20,076 nucleotides of DNA from a virus, in IMG/VR virus record IMGVR_UViG_3300037584_003378, positions 1 to 20,076 of that record; one strand, written 5' to 3'. The notes under the pieces are model-generated. The model was not told the origin of the DNA. It saw nothing but the letters and a program-made list of their open reading frames with translations, and ran no database searches. Positions 3,203-13,162 of this stretch are shown here, one piece after another (the stretch's first letter is position 1; every line of letters begins with the position of its first letter). Both the position numbers and the translations under genes were made by a program.

Positions 3203-3562
3203 CTAGAAATTGTAATCGTGAAACTTGACCCATCCTTGGCCTATAACGGTGCGCCTGTCGCTTCCTTTTTCATACCACTCGTTATCGCTTCCTAGATAAC
3301 CTTCTGTGATTGCGCCGTCAGGATTTTCTGTGATAATCCATCTTTGCTCCCTGTTGTTTGTGCAATGGCCTGCAAATCCGCCTGCAATCATTTCTGGTTT
3401 CCAAGTAGGGTCAAGAATTGCTTTTGCTTCCTGTAACTTGATGCGCTTGCCTTTTCTCTCGATAACTGTATAAGGGTTTGTATCTGACCAAAGAGAAATG
3501 TGCGCCTGATCGCCGACCTGAAAGTCTTTGTGATCGGCGGGAACTGTATAAGGTCTGAACAT
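3203..3562 (-). CDS. Hypothetical phage protein, 119 aa (VGDQAHISLWSD type)
   Basis: The start is placed at ATG 3562 because AGGAGG lies seven bases upstream and the ATG overlaps the stop of a 37-residue gene (TAATG). The longer reading would add ten residues of that gene's tail in another frame. The sequence includes 'FQVGDQAHISLWSDTNPYTV', 'KRIKLQEAKAIL', 'AGGFAGHCTNNREQRW' and ends 'VKFHDYNF'. This order (GD...SD..PYTV..., GGF.GHC...QRW, F.DYNF) matches a phage hypothetical family I recognise but cannot name. It probably forms a small beta barrel. Function unknown. Confidence 0.82.
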   Translation of the reverse strand: MFRPYTVPADHKDFQVGDQAHISLWSDTNPYTVIERKGKRIKLQEAKAILDPTWKPEMIAGGFAGHCTNNREQRWIITENPDGAITEGYLGSDNEWYEKGSDRRTVIGQGWVKFHDYNF

Positions 3563-3675
3563 TACTGAACCTCCTCTATCTCTTTCAACCATGCCTGACG
3601 TCTTGCATCAGCGGTTTTTGCGGCGATCATTTTTTCCCATCTTTGGAAATTTTTGAATCGTTTTGTGTTTGTCAT
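3562..3675 (-). CDS. Tiny Lys/Arg-rich protein, 37 aa
   Basis: Read by hand from ATG 3675 to TAA 3562. The product MTNTKRFKNFQRWEKMIAAK... ends in E-E-V-Q and is mostly helical and amphipathic. The ATG lies 55 bases after the -35 of a strong promoter and directly after the shared leader ending AAACCAATG, exactly as in the neighbouring units. The 3' end contains the Shine-Dalgarno of the next gene, and the stop overlaps the next ATG. Function unknown; possibly a leader peptide that couples translation of the 119-residue protein. Confidence 0.75.
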   Translation of the reverse strand: MTNTKRFKNFQRWEKMIAAKTADARRQAWLKEIEEVQ

Positions 3676-4202: not shown

Positions 4203-4231
4203 TTGACAAATCTAATTAATTATATTATAAT
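4203..4231 (+). promoter_or_regulatory. Sigma70-like promoter (TTGACA-17-TATAAT) with leader hairpin
   Basis: -35 TTGACA 4203-4208, a 17-base spacer, -10 TATAAT 4226-4231. Unlike the other leaders, this one begins with a small hairpin (TGAGG-GTCAAA-CCTCA, 4237-4252) and has a true Shine-Dalgarno (AGGAGG 4279-4284) ahead of a TTG start. Confidence 0.9.
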
Positions 4232-4289
4232 AGGATTGAGGGTCAAACCTCAGAAACTTGAAAACCAAATAAACCAAAAGGAGGTAACT

Positions 4290-4670
4290 TTGATTAAATT
4301 CACGGAACGCGAAGCCGAACTTCTTGCTGATCGTCCACCTGATTGTATAGCTGATTGCTTAAGTCAGACTTATGATTGGGATTACGATTTTCTAGATGGC
4401 AAGGCTACGCATCTAAATTGGTGTATTGAAATCAAAAAAGAAATTACAGACGAATTAGACAATTACGATCTGGAAATTCTTCACGATATGGTTGATGGAA
4501 ACACAATCATGCAAGGTTTAGCTGACCTCGTAGAGTTCGAGGAAATGACCAAAAAAGAATTTGGTCTTTATAAACGTGCTTTTAGAAGTGCTATCAAAAA
4601 GCTGAACAAAATCGGCGAGGGTCACGAAAGTTTCCCTATCGACCCCGATGATGGGATGCTCTATTTGTAA
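4290..4670 (+). CDS. Acidic hypothetical protein, 126 aa, TTG start
   Basis: The start is TTG at 4290, five bases after AGGAGG. The upstream reading from 4203 would begin at the -35 box and cannot be translated from this promoter. The product begins M-I-K-F-T-E-R-E-A-E-L-L and is acidic and helical, with four Trp/Tyr/Cys-containing segments in its first half ('YDWDYDFLDG', 'HLNWCIEIKK'). A helical block at residues 70-115 contains 'KRAFRSAIKKLNKIGEG'. No named family is recognised. A GC hairpin lies just after the stop. First gene of a two-gene plus unit in the inserted block between the head cassettes. Confidence 0.78.
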   Translation: MIKFTEREAELLADRPPDCIADCLSQTYDWDYDFLDGKATHLNWCIEIKKEITDELDNYDLEILHDMVDGNTIMQGLADLVEFEEMTKKEFGLYKRAFRSAIKKLNKIGEGHESFPIDPDDGMLYL

Positions 4671-4676
4671 ACAATC

Positions 4677-4692
4677 GCCCCCTTCGGGGGGC
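4677..4692 (+). other. GC-rich hairpin without T-tract (intercistronic)
   Basis: GCCCCC-TTCG-GGGGGC forms a perfect six-base-pair stem with a UUCG tetraloop, seven bases after the stop of the 126-aa gene. No T run follows, so strong termination is unlikely. It could stabilise the upstream message or partially stop transcription before the next gene. It is followed by a short direct repeat, ACAATTCAA. Confidence 0.7.
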
Positions 4693-4731
4693 TACAAACA
4701 ATTCAAACAATTCAAACTAAAAGGAGAAATC

Positions 4732-5007
4732 ATGTCTGAATCTAAAAATTCAAATTCTGATAAAAAAGTTATTTTAATTAATGATGATACGATTGCAGTT
4801 TTTTTGACGTATCACGAATTACATCTTCTGATGGGTGTTATGGATGGAAGTTCTGGCTGTGATAAAGATGCAGACTTAACAGACCCCGAAGACCCAAACT
4901 ACACATCGGAATATGCCGCCATTGATGACAAGCTCACATTTGCGGCCAAAGGCGTTTTTTACAATGACGTCTATAAGAGAAAAATCGACCCTCAAGATTT
5001 TATCTAA
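4732..5007 (+). CDS. Acidic hypothetical protein, 91 aa
   Basis: The start at ATG 4732 has a good Shine-Dalgarno (AAAGGAGA). The longer in-frame reading would cross the hairpin and part of the previous gene. The product MSESKNSNSDKKVILINDDT... is acidic. It contains 'FLTYHELHLLMGVMDGSSGC' and an Asp/Glu-rich stretch 'DADLTDPEDPNYTSEY'. No family recognised. It faces the end of the MuF-zeta gene across a terminator. An antitoxin or immunity role for the zeta domain would fit its size and charge, but nothing in the sequence shows it. Confidence 0.75.
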   Translation: MSESKNSNSDKKVILINDDTIAVFLTYHELHLLMGVMDGSSGCDKDADLTDPEDPNYTSEYAAIDDKLTFAAKGVFYNDVYKRKIDPQDFI

Positions 5008-5035: not shown

Positions 5036-7177
5036 TTATCGCTTTTTCTTTTCTGTCCACTTAGTAAACAGGCTGTTCGGTTGATCTGCCTTCGCCAAGA
5101 AATTTCCATAAAGATTATTATTAACTATCTTTAATCCATCTTTTTTTGTGAAGGTAGCGACCAGAACCGCTTCGCCTGTTTTGTTCATATCATAAAGTTC
5201 AAAGTCATCAAAGACGCCCGCCCTGATCGCTTCAGGAACAACCCTCGATACATCCCTATGAACATTGCGAACATACTTCGGCGGAACTAATCGTTTTGTT
5301 TTCAGAAACCTTTGATAATTTCTTTCAAGTGCTGTTGCAATTTCAGCTGTCGCATATTTAGCACGAACTGTCATGCCGCGATCTGTCATCATTTTAATTT
5401 TGCCTGATAAACTTTTCAGGCTTCCATCGCCTGTTCCATCAAGCATTGTGTGATACCTTCGCTGTGCGCACTCTCGCATTAATCGTTTACTTATCCAACT
5501 TGATTCTTCGTGAACATAGCCTGCGGCGGCTTCTGATATTTTTCCGCCCTTTGCCTGCATTGCCTTAAATTCTGGCAAGCGTTTTTTTATTTCATCAGAA
5601 TCAATAACAACTGTCCCTTTTTTCAATGGCGATTTCTTCAACATGATTGATTTACCAGAAGCCGACCCGCCCCCCGTCATATAGAAAATCGGATTCTTCT
5701 GCGCTCTTGGATTATTTTCCGCAATAATTTCTTCAACAATTTGATCATGTAATTTCTGACGTTCAGGCGTCCACTTTGTAAGGTTTGATGGTTCTGCGTC
5801 CTTTGCAAGTGAACCGTTTGAATATCTTTGCCAAGTATAAGGGGCGCTTTTTCTTTCTCTTACAACATCAGGAACAGCTTTGATTTTATCTGCATTTTTT
5901 CCATAAGCGGCCTGTAACTGCGCCAAAGTTTTTTCTGACCCATCAACAGAAGCAAATTTTCTAATTGCCTGATCGCCGCCATATTTTTTTGACAATTTAT
6001 CAAAAAATCGAACTTTATTTGCGCCAAGTGCTTTTGCCTTTACTGCGGGCGATTGTTGTGAAAGCCAAGTTCCATATGATTGCCCTGCGGGTACTAGACC
6101 GCTTTCTGATGGCCTGAACCCCCTACGTCTGGGCGCTTCGATCTTACGACCAAAAACACGGCTTAAATTGTCATAATCTATTTCGGCAACTGTTCTTGAT
6201 CTGCAATTAAAATGTTGTGGCGGCTCCGGCCCTTTTCCATATTCAAATACCTGTTGATCTAATAAACGACAACGCGAACTGGTTCTACTATCCAATGTTG
6301 CAAGATAACGATATTTTTTTGTTGCATCTGGGTTTGCTTTATAAACCTGTTGCGCCGCGACATTGCTTACTTGATTCAAAGAAGTTCTGACAATAGTCAT
6401 TATTTGATAGTTTGCGGCTCTTGTCGCATTACCGCCTGCCATCGCTATCTGTCGAACATTACCTTTTGAATTAAACCTTAATTGCCCGATCAATCTGGTT
6501 CTTATCTGTTGGGTTGTATCGCCTGCCAATAATCCATCACGAATTTCGCGCCCTAATTTATCCGCGCTTTTGTTTGTAATACCCCGAAAAGATTTCCTGA
6601 TTGATTCGCCATTTGGTAATTCAATCAATTCGCCTTCTTTTGCTGTCAATGAAAACTTTACCCCTGCCCCGCCTGCAATTGTATTTAATGAATCGCTCAA
6701 TATCTGAACGTTTAATTGTGACGCGCTTGTATTAACAACAGCTTTTGCAAATGCGGGTGTTACTTCAACAGTTCTAATTGATGACCTGATACCTGCGGGC
6801 AATGCTTTTTCCATCTGATCGGTTGCAAATTCTGTTTGTAATTTTGCAACAGCTTCAGATACAAGTTGCATATCTTTTGTCGATTTAATATCCCACTTTT
6901 TCAAACTTTCTTTTGTCTGAACTAACAAAGAACGCAAACGTGCGGCGGTATATCTTGGCCTATTGCCTACTGGAAGCCGTTCTATTGCTTCTAATTTATT
7001 AACAGCGTTTATTATTATTCGGTTATAAGATTGGACGATTTCACGTGAAATCTTATTTGAAAATCTGTTTAAATCTAAACTATTACGAAAATATTCTTCA
7101 GGTATTAAATCAGCGTAAGGAATAGATGCCCCAAGTTGGGAAACATCAGACGGAACCCGAATCGGCGTTTGTGTCAT
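5036..7177 (-). CDS. MuF-type minor head protein fused to zeta-toxin-like kinase domain
   Basis: A 713-residue protein. Residues about 215-335 form the Mu F / SPP1 gp7-like head-morphogenesis domain: helices with 'TIVRTSLNQVSN', then 'YRYLATLDSRTSSRC', 'LDQQVF' and 'PPQHFNCRSRTV' with its Cys/His pattern. Residues about 465-690 look like a zeta-toxin/PezT kinase: Walker A 'GGGSASGKS' (502-510, Lys509), 'VIDSDEI' (524-530), 'HEESS' (556-560) and an Arg/Lys-rich helix 'RNYQRFLKTKRL' (619-630). Family members phosphorylate UDP-N-acetylglucosamine, or act as P-loop kinases. The MuF part would sit at the portal inside the capsid. A Gln/Lys-rich region (355-465) links the two. Its start is coupled to the portal stop (TAATG). 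The N-terminal assignment is firm; the kinase activity is inferred. Confidence 0.92.
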   Translation of the reverse strand: MTQTPIRVPSDVSQLGASIPYADLIPEEYFRNSLDLNRFSNKISREIVQSYNRIIINAVNKLEAIERLPVGNRPRYTAARLRSLLVQTKESLKKWDIKSTKDMQLVSEAVAKLQTEFATDQMEKALPAGIRSSIRTVEVTPAFAKAVVNTSASQLNVQILSDSLNTIAGGAGVKFSLTAKEGELIELPNGESIRKSFRGITNKSADKLGREIRDGLLAGDTTQQIRTRLIGQLRFNSKGNVRQIAMAGGNATRAANYQIMTIVRTSLNQVSNVAAQQVYKANPDATKKYRYLATLDSRTSSRCRLLDQQVFEYGKGPEPPQHFNCRSRTVAEIDYDNLSRVFGRKIEAPRRRGFRPSESGLVPAGQSYGTWLSQQSPAVKAKALGANKVRFFDKLSKKYGGDQAIRKFASVDGSEKTLAQLQAAYGKNADKIKAVPDVVRERKSAPYTWQRYSNGSLAKDAEPSNLTKWTPERQKLHDQIVEEIIAENNPRAQKNPIFYMTGGGSASGKSIMLKKSPLKKGTVVIDSDEIKKRLPEFKAMQAKGGKISEAAAGYVHEESSWISKRLMRECAQRRYHTMLDGTGDGSLKSLSGKIKMMTDRGMTVRAKYATAEIATALERNYQRFLKTKRLVPPKYVRNVHRDVSRVVPEAIRAGVFDDFELYDMNKTGEAVLVATFTKKDGLKIVNNNLYGNFLAKADQPNSLFTKWTEKKKR

Positions 7178-8601
7178 TAATCTTCATCGTCTGGGTCTTC
7201 AACTGGTTCATCTGGTTCGGCTTCGGGTGTCGGTTCATCTGTTTCGATCATGTCGCCTTTTTGCGTTGATTCAATTTCTTCTTCAACGTCAAAATCATCG
7301 CCGAGGATTTCGCCTTCTGCCAATTGCTTCAATAATGTTTCTTGAGATATAGCGCCAGAAGACCATAAACCTTGCATCGCCTGAATCTCTTGCGGTGCTA
7401 ATCTCTGACCCAAGAAATCACGATTGACAAAAGCGTTTCCAATTTCTGCAATATTTAAATAATTAGCGTGAAATACCAAACAATTGTCGATCATATCCTG
7501 AAGCTGTTGCGCAACAATCATCAATGTTGAATCGCCTTGGCTTCTTTGTATTTCTTGCGAAGCGGCTGTTTCTGCGACTAATTTTTGGCCGAGGATTGCG
7601 GCAAGTGCCAAAGTATTAATTTGATCTTCAATATTTTTTATTCTGTCGCGTTGATACTGAAAAGATTGCCCCTTGATCTCTACAAACTCGGCTCTTGCAC
7701 CTTCTGGAAACGCAATCGCTTCGCCCGGCCCCGCACTTACTTCTTCTGATGCCTGCGGAAATCCAAAAAGACAAAGTAAAGGAACAGAAGATATTCTTAG
7801 TTGATTATCAAAGTCCGAACTCTTTTGATAGTGCAACAAATTCAATTCTGCAATATCTTGCATCGGCGGGCGTGATTCCAAGAAAGCAACCTTGTTTGAA
7901 TATGCAATCGCAAATGGAATGTAATCCAAAGATGTCGTTCCTTCATCAACTTTGACATATTTTCCCTGCCTGCCCTTTCTATGTACCTCAAAGGCTCCCG
8001 GCGTTAGTAATCGCACCTGTTCAACTTCTTTCTGTCCATAATCGCCGTCTTCTTCTGTAACACGTTCCAAAAGTCTTAATTGTGTTAATTTTTGCTTGCC
8101 GTCAATAAGTTCTGTCCGCCAACCTAAAATCTCACGCGGACTATATGTAATCCAATAAGGCCGACCAGTTCCGCCTGTCGGTGCATCAACAAGAACCCCA
8201 ACATGACCATATCTCAACATTATTTTTGCTGTCTCATATGTCCAACTTGTGAGATCGTTTCCCTGAAGGTCAACATCGAACAAATCTTCAGTAACCCTTT
8301 CTGATACCTCATTTAATCGAACAGGTTTGCGCGTAAGCATACCCGCAAGCAATCTTTCAATCCTGACGTATAGAGGCGCAAGAACTGAAGTCGCAAGTCT
8401 GTTATCGTAGCTCTCGTCTTGTTCGCGCGGCATCTGGGGGAGGTATTTTCTATGCCTTTTTCTTATCCCGTAAGTTCCGCTTATCAAATCCTCAATCAAT
8501 ATCCAATTCGGTTCCATATTTACATAAGCATTGCTAGGGTCTTGCACCTCAACAGCTTTGCTTGATCTTTCCCTGTCGTAGTGATTGAATGAAGAATACA
8601 C
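7177..8601 (-). CDS. Portal protein (DUF4055-like)
   Basis: A 474-residue protein that forms the dodecameric portal ring through which DNA is packaged. Features include 'YDNRLATSVLAPLYVRIERL' with 'LAGMLTRKPV' (65-94), 'YGHVGVLVDAPTGG' (131-144), 'YSPREILGWR' (153-162), and 'RPPMQDIAELNLLHYQKSSD' continuing F-D-N-Q-L-R-I-S-S-V-P (244-274). The last set is typical of DUF4055 portals. The C-terminus is a long Asp/Glu-rich tail. The start is GTG at 8601 with AGGAA upstream. It lies 38 bases after the large terminase and overlaps the MuF gene start. Length fits the family. Confidence 0.92.
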   Translation of the reverse strand: MYSSFNHYDRERSSKAVEVQDPSNAYVNMEPNWILIEDLISGTYGIRKRHRKYLPQMPREQDESYDNRLATSVLAPLYVRIERLLAGMLTRKPVRLNEVSERVTEDLFDVDLQGNDLTSWTYETAKIMLRYGHVGVLVDAPTGGTGRPYWITYSPREILGWRTELIDGKQKLTQLRLLERVTEEDGDYGQKEVEQVRLLTPGAFEVHRKGRQGKYVKVDEGTTSLDYIPFAIAYSNKVAFLESRPPMQDIAELNLLHYQKSSDFDNQLRISSVPLLCLFGFPQASEEVSAGPGEAIAFPEGARAEFVEIKGQSFQYQRDRIKNIEDQINTLALAAILGQKLVAETAASQEIQRSQGDSTLMIVAQQLQDMIDNCLVFHANYLNIAEIGNAFVNRDFLGQRLAPQEIQAMQGLWSSGAISQETLLKQLAEGEILGDDFDVEEEIESTQKGDMIETDEPTPEAEPDEPVEDPDDED

Positions 8602-8639: not shown

Positions 8640-9983
8640 TCAATATATTCTAATCCCTGTTTTGCGCCCTGCCCCCAAATGTAAGGGATTGAAGCAACGC
8701 CAACAAAGGTATCGGACGCAATCAGAGAAATGATCTAATCCTGTTTTTTCTGGTTCGCCTGATTCTGTATAAGATTGAAGTTCCAAAGATTCGATGACAT
8801 TTTTACAACACGGATGAACAAAAAGACTAACTTCTTCTTTACCATTGCATAAAAGGCGCTGAACATTATTAACGCTGTCTTTAATGGATGGATTAGATGC
8901 CCCCGATTGATTGGATATTCCATAACTTTCGAGAATTTGGATGTCGGTCTTCGTAGCGTTTGTCGATCTTGCTCCGCCTGAAGAATCTGGATAGCCGTAA
9001 AGTCTGTTATGAACAAACCTTGATTTGATTTCTTTTGCCAGTTGGTCGGTGTCATGTGCGCGTATTTCATCAAAAATATAAAGTTTGTTATCTCTAATCA
9101 CGGCGCAAACACAAGACATTTTGCCAATGTTGAAGTCAATACCAAGTCTTATAATTTCGTCTGAATAATTTGGAATGTCTTTTGTTATATGTTTTTCTCT
9201 ATCGAAGCGGTCAAAAACAGCGCCAGTTGTTAAAGATATGAACTGCCCTTCAAGGTACGCCTTGAGAAGATTAGGGTCATAGTTCATTTTCATTCTATCA
9301 ATAAAATCTGCGGGCAAATGTGGATTGTCTGTTGTTTTCATTCTTATTAACTTTCTGTCATTTTTTTCCTTTGCTTCATCACTCCCGAAAGTTTCCCAAA
9401 ACCATCTGTATCCTTCAGGGGTGGACGCCGCCGCGAACTGGCGAACATTCCCTGCGCGAAGACGTCCAAGAATTTTCGGAAAGGCTCTTTGACATATAGA
9501 GGGTGCAACTGTGTCGATTTCATCGGCAAGAATAAATGACGCGTTTATACCGATTATTCTTTGCCAAGACTCGAAACTTCTACACATTATGCGCGTGTCT
9601 CCTTTGGGTAGATGCAAAACAAAATCAGGCAACGGCGAACTTCTGAATGTGTAAGGAATCTCGTAATTTAATAAAAATTCCTCAAATTCTGTTACAAAGA
9701 GATCACGAACCAAAGGCTGTGTCGGCTCTAATACAATGCCCGTGAAGCCTTGATTTAGTAATGACAAGTGCAAACACTTTGCCAGTAAAGATCGAGTTTT
9801 ACCTGACCCATAACCCGCGCATAAACCCAATATTTCTGTTTCTGTGTCATTTACAAACGATAGTTGCCCCGCGTGAAGATCAGATAACACACGCTCTAAT
9901 ATTATCTCTGTATCTTTTTCATCAGGAGGATTTAAAAAATCGAGGAGGGGTTGTTTTTCGCAGACATCAGAAATAAGGCTCAT
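8640..9983 (-). CDS. terL: Terminase large subunit
   Basis: A 447-residue packaging motor: an ATPase that pumps DNA into the procapsid, with a C-terminal RNase H-like nuclease that cuts concatemers. Walker A is 'CAGYGSGKT' (55-63, Lys62), Walker B 'FILADEID' (150-157, Asp154/Glu155), and the coupling motif 'AAASTPEG' lies at 184-191. Nuclease acidic residues are at 'LGIDFN' (Asp283), 'YPDSSG' (Asp333) and 'GLDHFSD' (Asp417/421). Length and order fit the Terminase_6/Terminase_3 group. The start overlaps the small terminase stop (ATGA). A short AT-rich gap precedes the portal gene. Confidence 0.96.
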   Translation of the reverse strand: MSLISDVCEKQPLLDFLNPPDEKDTEIILERVLSDLHAGQLSFVNDTETEILGLCAGYGSGKTRSLLAKCLHLSLLNQGFTGIVLEPTQPLVRDLFVTEFEEFLLNYEIPYTFRSSPLPDFVLHLPKGDTRIMCRSFESWQRIIGINASFILADEIDTVAPSICQRAFPKILGRLRAGNVRQFAAASTPEGYRWFWETFGSDEAKEKNDRKLIRMKTTDNPHLPADFIDRMKMNYDPNLLKAYLEGQFISLTTGAVFDRFDREKHITKDIPNYSDEIIRLGIDFNIGKMSCVCAVIRDNKLYIFDEIRAHDTDQLAKEIKSRFVHNRLYGYPDSSGGARSTNATKTDIQILESYGISNQSGASNPSIKDSVNNVQRLLCNGKEEVSLFVHPCCKNVIESLELQSYTESGEPEKTGLDHFSDCVRYLCWRCFNPLHLGAGRKTGIRIY

Positions 9984-12244: not shown

Positions 12245-12464
12245 AACGCCTTCTTTACTTTCGCCTTGTGGCTCTTATCAGGTTGACTTTTTCCCAATAA
12301 AAGGTCGATCTGATCTTTTTCTAAGATGTGGAGTTTTTGAAGGTCTTATTGAATTTCAAGAATGTGTATCGCACGTTGAAATGTTTCGAGAAGTAGAAAG
12401 CAAAAGATTTAGAAAATTTAGAACAATAAAGCAAAATAAAATCCCGCAAGAAATAATTATATGA
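12237..12464 (+). CDS. Hypothetical protein, 75 aa
   Basis: The start is ATG 12237, overlapping the previous stop by eight bases; an in-frame ATG at 12225 is possible. The product MIETPSLLSPCGSYQVDFFP... alternates short beta strands ('DLFLRCGVFEGLIEFQ') with a basic helical tail. No family recognised. It ends in an ATGA overlap with the Mom-like gene, so the two are probably expressed together. Confidence 0.7.
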   Translation: MIETPSLLSPCGSYQVDFFPIKGRSDLFLRCGVFEGLIEFQECVSHVEMFREVESKRFRKFRTIKQNKIPQEIII

Positions 12465-13162
12465 AAGATAAATATTCAATAAAGCCTGTTTTTAGTACAG
12501 AATGTTATGAATGGTTTTTAAAGAAACACTATGCGCGAAGATTGCCGAATATTAATTGCGCTTTTGGGTTGTACGATAATTTAAATCTGTTGCAAGGTGT
12601 TTGCAGCTTTGGTAAACCTATGAGCCATACGCTAGTATCTGGGGCAATAAATGGGCTATATCAAGATAATTTTCTTGAACTTAATAGATTAGTTATCAAT
12701 GAAGGATTAGAAAAAAATGTTCTCAGCTTTTTTGTTTCTGGTTGCTTAAATAGATTGCCGAAACCGTTGGTTGTTGTTTCATATGCTGATACATCGCAAG
12801 GGCATCACGGGTTTATTTATCAGGCCACAAATTGGATTTATACAGGACTAAGCGCAAAATTTAAAGATTATGCTGTAAAAGGTCTTGAACATATGCACCA
12901 CAGTTCGATTGAAGACAGCGTTGGCCGCTATGACGAAAACAAAAACATTAATAAACATGAGTTATTAAGAAAAAAATACGGCGATAGGTTGTACATGAAA
13001 GAACGTCCGCGAAAACATAGATATTTTTATTTTCTAGGCAATAAAAAAGAAAAAGCGCTTATGAATGAAAACTTGCAATATAAAGTCGAACCATACCCAA
13101 AAGGCGACAACAAGAGATATGACGCAAGTTATAAGCCGAGCGTTCAGGGCGTGTTGTTTTGA
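12461..13162 (+). CDS. Mom-like adenine modification protein (GNAT-fold family)
   Basis: A 233-residue protein. The motif set is 'CAFGLY' (33-38), 'GVCSFGKP' (46-53), 'FLELNRLVINEGL' (71-83), 'VVVSYADTSQGHHGFIYQAT' (104-123) continuing N-W-I-Y-T-G, and 'ERPRKHRYFYFLG' (181-193). This matches, as I remember it, phage proteins annotated as Mom family, related to phage Mu Mom, which converts adenine in phage DNA to N6-carbamoylmethyladenine and blocks many restriction enzymes. Mom proteins have a GNAT-like fold. Length is close to Mu Mom (about 240 residues). It is the last gene of its operon, start-coupled by ATGA, and its last 19 bases overlap a convergent gene. Family call is strong; the exact modification is inferred. 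Confidence 0.87.
   Translation: MKDKYSIKPVFSTECYEWFLKKHYARRLPNINCAFGLYDNLNLLQGVCSFGKPMSHTLVSGAINGLYQDNFLELNRLVINEGLEKNVLSFFVSGCLNRLPKPLVVVSYADTSQGHHGFIYQATNWIYTGLSAKFKDYAVKGLEHMHHSSIEDSVGRYDENKNINKHELLRKKYGDRLYMKERPRKHRYFYFLGNKKEKALMNENLQYKVEPYPKGDNKRYDASYKPSVQGVLF

What the first reader, a model, noticed from the sequence alone, without database searches (positions are those of the whole stretch)
5036..6730. Minor head protein carries a C-terminal zeta-toxin-like kinase
Seen: after a standard MuF core (residues about 215-335), the protein continues for 380 residues, ending with a P-loop domain: Walker A GGGSASGKS, VIDSDEI, HEESS and an Arg/Lys helix, in the order of zeta/PezT toxins. Established: MuF proteins with variable C-terminal toxin domains (MuF polymorphic toxins) are known in prophages and phages, and zeta toxins phosphorylate UDP-GlcNAc and block wall synthesis. 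Inference: this phage may package an enzyme in its head and inject it, to weaken the wall, poison competitors or alter host metabolism.
Basis: partly seen in the sequence, partly recalled or inferred. Interest (0 to 1): 0.8.

Follow-up and report, generated by a model that had tools for sequence, protein, structure and literature searches.

The report
Phage head protein with AvrRxo1/zeta-like kinase
A marine phage, probably infecting cyanobacteria, fuses a P-loop kinase of the zeta/AvrRxo1 fold to its portal-bound minor head protein; a relative of this fusion is already known to be abundant in purified cyanophage particles, so it is probably an enzyme carried in by the virus, but the residues that bind the wall precursor UDP-GlcNAc are not conserved, so the wall-poisoning story is doubtful.

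Summary
ORF 5036-7177 (minus strand, 713 aa) has a MuF core and a C-terminal zeta-type kinase (Pfam Zeta_toxin E 1.7e-18). An AlphaFold model (pLDDT 91) matches AvrRxo1 and zeta/PezT crystal structures at Z about 20. Walker Lys509, catalytic Asp528 and Arg623 are invariant in 34 homologues, and the domain is under the same purifying selection as the MuF core.

For packaging: the homologous MuF-kinase of Prochlorococcus phage P-SS2 (ORF030) averaged 96.5 peptides in purified virions (published proteome; not recognised there as a kinase). For a swappable effector: related cyanosiphoviruses end without a tail, with a metallopeptidase-like tail, or with an ADP-ribosyltransferase-like tail; one pair shares 95% identical first 530 residues with unrelated tails. 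Against cell-wall poisoning: zeta's UDP-GlcNAc contacts Arg120 and Glu100 align with Asp584 and Lys564, and the kinase shares motifs (W..ER..LH, VHxESS) and longest alignments with AvrRxo1, an NAD 3'-kinase. I found no cognate immunity gene and no sign of lysogeny, so the classical MuF toxin-immunity model is not supported either.

MuF-zeta fusions were described in 2017: new member of a known kind. Substrate and injection are untested.

The parts
5036..7177 (-). MuF-kinase fusion gene, 713 aa minor head protein (stop codon included)
   Evidence: 50-odd viral contigs with the same architecture
5897..7177 (-). minor-head core (residues 1-427): MuF domain at residues 207-329 plus the lineage's conserved C-terminal segment; homologous to the complete, untailed proteins of KBS-S-2A and S-H1
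   Evidence: Pfam PF04233, NCBIfam TIGR01641, core 47% identical to KBS-S-2A, which ends here
5039..5857 (-). AvrRxo1/zeta-like P-loop kinase module (residues 441-713)
   Evidence: Pfam PF06414 1.7e-18, NCBIfam AvrRxo1/XopAJ 8.7e-8 below cut-off, AF2 model pLDDT 90.9, VIA Z 20.9 AvrRxo1 / 20.1 zeta / 19.5 PezT
5648..5674 (-). Walker A GGGSASGKS (residues 502-510, K509)
   Evidence: K509 invariant, 34 of 34
5588..5608 (-). VIDSDEI, residues 524-530: D526 and D528 (D528 aligns with zeta catalytic Asp67)
   Evidence: both Asp invariant, 34 of 34; alignment to zeta
5498..5512 (-). HEESS, residues 556-560; shared with AvrRxo1 (VHxESS), not with zeta or PezT
5423..5440 (-). DGTGDG, residues 580-585; zeta has EGTGRT, with Arg120 contacting UDP phosphates; here Asp584
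5291..5323 (-). R619/R623/R629 region (catalytic/lid Arg positions of the zeta fold)
   Evidence: R623 34 of 34, R629 33 of 34, R619 31 of 34
7177..8601 (-). portal protein, start/stop overlap with the MuF gene
   Evidence: PHROG 145 E 1e-107; TAATG junction
8640..9983 (-). terminase large subunit; 61-63% identical to cyanosiphovirus terminases

Best explanation
A lytic-looking marine siphovirus of the P-HS2/KBS-S-2A cyanophage group carries its minor head (MuF) protein with a swappable enzymatic tail. Here the tail is a P-loop small-molecule kinase of the zeta/AvrRxo1 fold. Proposed working: the MuF core docks on the portal and brings the tail into the capsid; the protein leaves with the DNA and the kinase acts once in the newly infected cell, using ATP to phosphorylate a hydroxyl of a host metabolite activated by Asp528. 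The substrate is more likely a nucleotide cofactor such as NAD (as for AvrRxo1) than UDP-GlcNAc. Shown here: fusion, predicted fold, kept catalytic residues, purifying selection, tail exchange. Shown by others for a homologue: presence in virions. Inferred: ejection into the host, enzymatic activity, substrate and benefit to the phage.
For: Domains and fold; invariant catalytic residues; kinase median dN/dS 0.117 against 0.113 for the MuF core. P-SS2 ORF030 (MuF plus kinase, 48% identical kinase) averaged 96.5 peptides in purified virions, second only to the tape measure protein (PMC2784084). Effector slot: same core without tail (KBS-S-2A, S-H1), with HExxH tail (P-HS2, L060), with ART-like tail (L054, L059); L059 and L060 are 95% identical over 532 residues and unrelated after. 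Kinase 48-51% identical to P-SS2-type proteins whose MuF core is not detectably similar. SPP1 gp7 is portal-bound, inside the procapsid and supports the start of infection. Substrate: the UNAG contacts Arg120/Glu100 align with Asp584/Lys564, and AvrRxo1-type motifs are present; AvrRxo1 phosphorylates NAD, not UNAG.
Against: No activity, substrate or ejection data for any MuF-kinase. AvrRxo1 and zeta are tied in Z (difference under 1). Identity to either is about 20% or less, so substrate transfer is weak. P-SS2 ORF030 also has other regions, and the peptide table does not say which part was seen or whether it is ejected. P-SS2-type kinases have GKG instead of GKS/T at the Walker A end.
Confidence: 0.6

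Rival explanations
1. The tail is a true zeta toxin: it phosphorylates UDP-GlcNAc (or another UDP-sugar) of the newly infected cell, halting wall synthesis or easing DNA entry, as Iyer and colleagues proposed in 2017 for MuF-zeta fusions.
For: Pfam Zeta_toxin 1.7e-18; fold Z 20 to zeta with UNAG bound (3q8x); GTG of the GTxR motif kept; published proposal.
Against: R120 of GTxR is Asp584 and E100 is Lys564, both invariant in the 11 nearest homologues; the kinase shares HEESS and W..ER..LH with AvrRxo1, which does not use UNAG. However, Neisseria zeta1 uses UDP-sugars with a different pocket, so UDP-sugars are not excluded.
Confidence: 0.17
2. Classical MuF polymorphic toxin: a lysogen or cell that makes it is protected by an immunity protein, and the toxin kills unprotected competitors.
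For: Variable tails on a constant MuF core; toxin-type fold; other MuF toxins come with immunity genes. A 129-aa gene (window 3203-3592) lies downstream in 21 of 24 kinase loci with enough sequence.
Against: No gene is fixed next to the kinase: that gene sits 177-1980 bp away, is missing from L103/L105/L106 and has homologues in unrelated phages that are not among the phages with a kinase match. No tyrosine or serine recombinase found in 37-41 kb relatives, though the same tyrosine search also missed the integrase annotated in P-SS2. KBS-S-2A is described as probably lytic.
Confidence: 0.12
3. The kinase acts before packaging or inside the virion rather than in the next cell: for example as a structural or assembly domain, or on phage nucleic acid ends like polynucleotide kinases.
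For: Very high peptide count of P-SS2 ORF030 could mean many copies, more than the few MuF copies of SPP1; polynucleotide kinase is the next fold family, Z 13.
Against: Untailed cores suffice in KBS-S-2A and S-H1, so the tail is not needed for assembly in general; catalytic residues strongly conserved; Z to polynucleotide kinase far below AvrRxo1 and zeta.
Confidence: 0.1

Closest known systems
P-SS2 ORF030 / ACT65592 (PHROG 16619 'minor head protein'), Prochlorococcus siphovirus
   Same: MuF domain plus the same kinase subfamily (48% identity over 260 aa), found in purified virions
   Different: 1,499 aa with further regions, including ART-like motifs; MuF core not detectably similar to ours by BLASTP; Walker A ends GKG; published as 'major capsid protein', not as a kinase
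MuF-fused zeta-toxin-like kinases (polyvalent proteins, Iyer et al. 2017, PMC5512222)
   Same: Same architecture: MuF fused to a zeta-like kinase in phages
   Different: They infer wall targeting from the family; the residue-level comparison here argues against the UNAG pocket in this subfamily
AvrRxo1 (XopAJ) NAD 3'-kinase
   Same: Fold (Z 20.9, 255 residues aligned, 20% identity), W..ER..LH and VHxESS motifs, catalytic Asp and P-loop
   Different: Bacterial type III effector with its own antitoxin partner; our protein scores 31.7 against a cut-off of 300; NAD use untested
Zeta / PezT UNAG kinases
   Same: Fold (Z 20.1 / 19.5), P-loop, Asp67 and Arg158/Arg171 equivalents, GTG motif
   Different: UNAG contacts Arg120 and Glu100 replaced by Asp and Lys; no fixed neighbour gene as antitoxin; fused to a head protein
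MuF polymorphic toxins (Jamet 2017; Apk2)
   Same: MuF N-terminus, swappable enzymatic C-terminus
   Different: Those are in temperate phages with immunity genes; neither seen here

Membership tests
MuF / SPP1 gp7-like minor head protein | MuF domain over curated cut-off | tested here: met
   PF04233 41.2 bits (cut-off 29.6); TIGR01641 41.4 (cut-off 39.65)
MuF / SPP1 gp7-like minor head protein | encoded next to portal and terminase in the late operon | tested here: met
   TerL, portal, MuF with TAATG overlap
MuF / SPP1 gp7-like minor head protein | present inside the virion | not testable with these tools
   shown for homologue P-SS2 ORF030 by published proteomics
Zeta toxin superfamily (Pfam PF06414) | curated model score | tested here: met
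   67.2 bits against 22.3
Zeta toxin superfamily (Pfam PF06414) | fold | tested here: met
   AF2 model, Z 20.1 to zeta and 19.5 to PezT
Zeta/PezT UNAG 3'-kinase | P-loop, catalytic Asp, conserved Arg | tested here: met
   K509, D528, R623 invariant in 34 homologues
Zeta/PezT UNAG 3'-kinase | UNAG contacts GTxR (Arg120) and Glu100 | tested here: not met
   aligned residues are Asp584 and Lys564
Zeta/PezT UNAG 3'-kinase | paired epsilon/PezA antitoxin | tested here: inconclusive
   no gene fixed next to the kinase across 58 loci; an unrelated or distant antitoxin is not excluded
AvrRxo1 / XopAJ | NCBIfam NF041405 over its cut-off | tested here: not met
   31.7 bits against 300
AvrRxo1 / XopAJ | fold and VHxESS / W..ER..LH motifs | tested here: met
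   Z 20.9, 255 aligned; motif alignment
AvrRxo1 / XopAJ | NAD 3'-phosphorylation | not testable with these tools
   needs an enzyme assay
MuF polymorphic toxin | constant MuF core with variable C-terminal enzymes | tested here: met
   none / kinase / ART-like / metallopeptidase-like tails; L059 vs L060
MuF polymorphic toxin | adjacent immunity gene | tested here: inconclusive
   no fixed neighbour; one candidate at variable distance
MuF polymorphic toxin | temperate phage | tested here: inconclusive
   no integrase or resolvase found, but the integrase search also missed P-SS2's annotated one

The most novel reading that the evidence does not exclude
Lytic cyanophages carry in their heads an AvrRxo1-like NAD kinase and inject it at the first moment of infection, where 3'-phosphorylated NAD(P) reprograms host redox metabolism or blunts NAD-dependent defences, in a slot that other phages of the group fill with ADP-ribosyltransferase-like or protease-like tails.
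Probability: 0.25. Interest if true: 0.85.

Novelty: new member of a known kind. Interest (0 to 1): 0.5.

Why it matters
It links a predicted injected kinase to a published virion proteome in a cultured cyanophage, so packaging and delivery of MuF effectors becomes testable. It also shows that reading 'zeta toxin' as 'cell-wall poison' is unsafe for this subfamily. The natural series of one head protein with no tail, kinase, protease-like or ART-like tails in marine cyanosiphoviruses is a ready-made system for asking what a virion-borne effector is worth.

Tried and rejected
An immunity or antitoxin gene: clustering of all ORFs in 2.5 kb downstream of the kinase in 58 loci gave no fixed neighbour; the best candidate (129 aa, 3203-3592) occurs in unrelated phages. 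Integrase and resolvase searches in sister contigs found nothing, but this is weak since P-SS2's annotated integrase was missed by the same Pfam model. A host chromosome source: the one genome-contig scan found only a 'Myxococcales MAG' contig that IMG/VR also holds as viral; the scan used two strict peptide patterns, so absence elsewhere is weak. A dS dip over residues 281-440 was considered as a sign of an overlapping element or recombination zone and left unexplained. Rows labelled 'none' for L066 and L086 in the core tree are a contig end and a split reading frame, not true untailed proteins. A literature search for 'zeta toxin' with 'minor head protein' found nothing.

Full report
Check of the observation. 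The gene is 5036-7177 on the minus strand, 713 aa, ATG overlapping the portal stop codon. Pfam finds Phage_Mu_F at residues 207-329 and Zeta_toxin at 491-665, both above curated cut-offs. PHROG 16619, 'minor head protein', matches 427-697 at 2.6e-70, so phage databases already contain this fusion. The window is a 20,076-base IMG/VR record.

Relatives. About 50 viral contigs carry the fusion at 72-100% identity in the kinase. The nearest named phages are marine cyanosiphoviruses: KBS-S-2A, S-H1, MED4-184/P-HS2 and MED4-117 for the core (40-47%) and for the terminase (61-63%), and P-SS2 for the kinase (48%). A cyanobacterial host is therefore likely, but is inferred.

Fold and active site. An AlphaFold2 model of residues 441-713 from 34 viral sequences has mean pLDDT 90.9 and pTM 0.84. 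Foldseek gives zeta and AvrRxo1 at E about 1e-11. VIA-align gives AvrRxo1 Z 20.9 (rmsd 3.5, 255 aligned), zeta 20.1 (3.1, 224), PezT 19.5 (4.7, 224), bacterial polynucleotide kinase 13.3 and Neisseria zeta1 12.0. Rows within 1 Z are tied, so the model shows membership in the zeta/AvrRxo1 group and does not by itself choose between them. K509, D526, D528, K531, E558 and R623 are invariant in 34 sequences. Codon analysis of 17 genes gives median dN/dS 0.117 for the kinase and 0.113 for the MuF core: the kinase is maintained.

Substrate. In zeta, UNAG is held by Asp67, Glu100, the GTxR motif with Arg120, Thr128 and Arg158. In the profile alignment to 1gvn, which is ungapped from HEESS to GTGD, Arg120 falls on Asp584 and Glu100 on Lys564; both are invariant in the 11 nearest homologues and predominate in all 34. 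AvrRxo1 shares the helix motif W..ER..LH and the VHxESS motif. NCBIfam's AvrRxo1 model matches residues 467-692 at 8.7e-8, the PezT model only 492-584 at 3.8e-5; both are far below their cut-offs. AvrRxo1 lacks the UNAG residues, does not phosphorylate UNAG appreciably, and makes 3'-NADP. I therefore rank NAD or a similar nucleotide cofactor above UDP-GlcNAc, at about 0.4 against 0.17, the rest being other substrates. This is inference from motifs at about 20% identity.

Is it in the virion? The P-SS2 paper (PMC2784084, Table 2) lists ORF030, 17648-22147, 1,500 aa, with an average of 96.5 peptides in purified particles from three replicates, second to the tape measure protein (102). Those coordinates are the record's 'minor head protein' ACT65592, which carries MuF (154-270) and Zeta_toxin (427-597, 9.8e-22). 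The authors called it a major capsid protein. So a MuF-kinase is a genuine virion component in an isolated phage. That it enters the cell is not shown; SPP1 gp7, the model MuF protein, is bound to the portal inside the procapsid and supports the start of infection.

A swappable tail. KBS-S-2A (416 aa) and S-H1 stop at the residue matching our 427. P-HS2 carries a tail with HEMGHQVHF, L060 a similar one, L054/L057/L059/L064 tails with ADP-ribosyltransferase-like RG...SW[ST]...ExE motifs; the Pfam hits for these tails are below cut-off, so the names are tentative. L059 and L060 are 95% identical over 532 residues and have no significant similarity after that. A tree of the MuF cores interleaves tail types; the kinase label needs two changes. 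In P-SS2-type phages several tails are strung together: L121 has MuF, kinase, HExxH and ART-like segments in 1,751 aa, and L117/L119 have two kinases in tandem. Kinases 48-51% identical sit on MuF cores with no BLASTP similarity to ours, and L103 has a 74% kinase on a 46% core, consistent with module exchange.

Toxin-immunity and lifestyle. Of all ORFs within 2.5 kb downstream in 58 loci, none is fixed beside the kinase. A 129-aa gene is present in 21 of 24 eligible loci, but 177-1980 bp away, missing from L103/L105/L106 and with homologues in unrelated phages. No tyrosine or serine recombinase was found in 37-41 kb sisters; the control that P-SS2's annotated integrase was also missed makes this weak. 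KBS-S-2A is reported as probably strictly lytic. The MuF toxins studied so far are in temperate phages with immunity genes. This one fits better as an effector injected by a phage that kills its host anyway.

Novelty. Iyer et al. 2017 already list zeta-toxin-like kinases fused to MuF and propose wall weakening. What is added here: the link to the P-SS2 proteome, the residue evidence against the UNAG pocket and towards AvrRxo1, and the tail-exchange series in cyanosiphoviruses. I rate it a new member of a known kind, interest 0.5.

Noticed in passing
L121:4753-10005 (106 kb viral contig): One 1,751-aa head protein strings together MuF, the kinase, an HExxH metallopeptidase-like segment, Rho_N/SAP-like repeats and an ART-like end, i.e. 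the tails that small cyanosiphoviruses carry singly.
   Followed up: partly
L117:4759-9978 and L119:30-4292: Two tandem copies of the kinase in one MuF protein; L117 also has ParB-like segments. L117 is the same contig as a 'Myxococcales' MAG contig PBTG01000079 (L114), probably a phage binned into a bacterial genome.
   Followed up: partly
L059 versus L060: Minor head proteins 95% identical over 532 residues with unrelated tails (ART-like versus metallopeptidase-like): a recent tail swap.
   Followed up: yes
window 12461-13162 (+): Mom-like DNA modification protein (Pfam Mom 1.8e-38) in a cyanosiphovirus-like phage.
   Followed up: no
window 5036-7177, residues 281-440: Synonymous divergence among relatives is lower here (pS about 0.28-0.37) than over most of the kinase (0.38-0.61), around the end of the MuF core and the tail junction.
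   Followed up: partly
window 4203-5007 (+): Two ORFs on the opposite strand between the MuF gene and the scaffold gene; the region just downstream of MuF differs in gene content among relatives.
   Followed up: partly
L132, L135, L137-L140: A second kinase subfamily (GPPAAGKS, VHEESS, PKVG in place of DGTG) inside other very large phage proteins; the one scanned (L132) has no MuF match.
   Followed up: no
P-SS2 and relatives (L082, L116, L117, L119, L121): Walker A of the kinase ends GKG instead of GKS/T, though the other catalytic residues are kept.
   Followed up: no
L086 (MED4-117, NC_020857): The MuF gene is annotated as two overlapping ORFs where near-identical P-HS2 has one; probably a frameshift in the record.
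   Followed up: no
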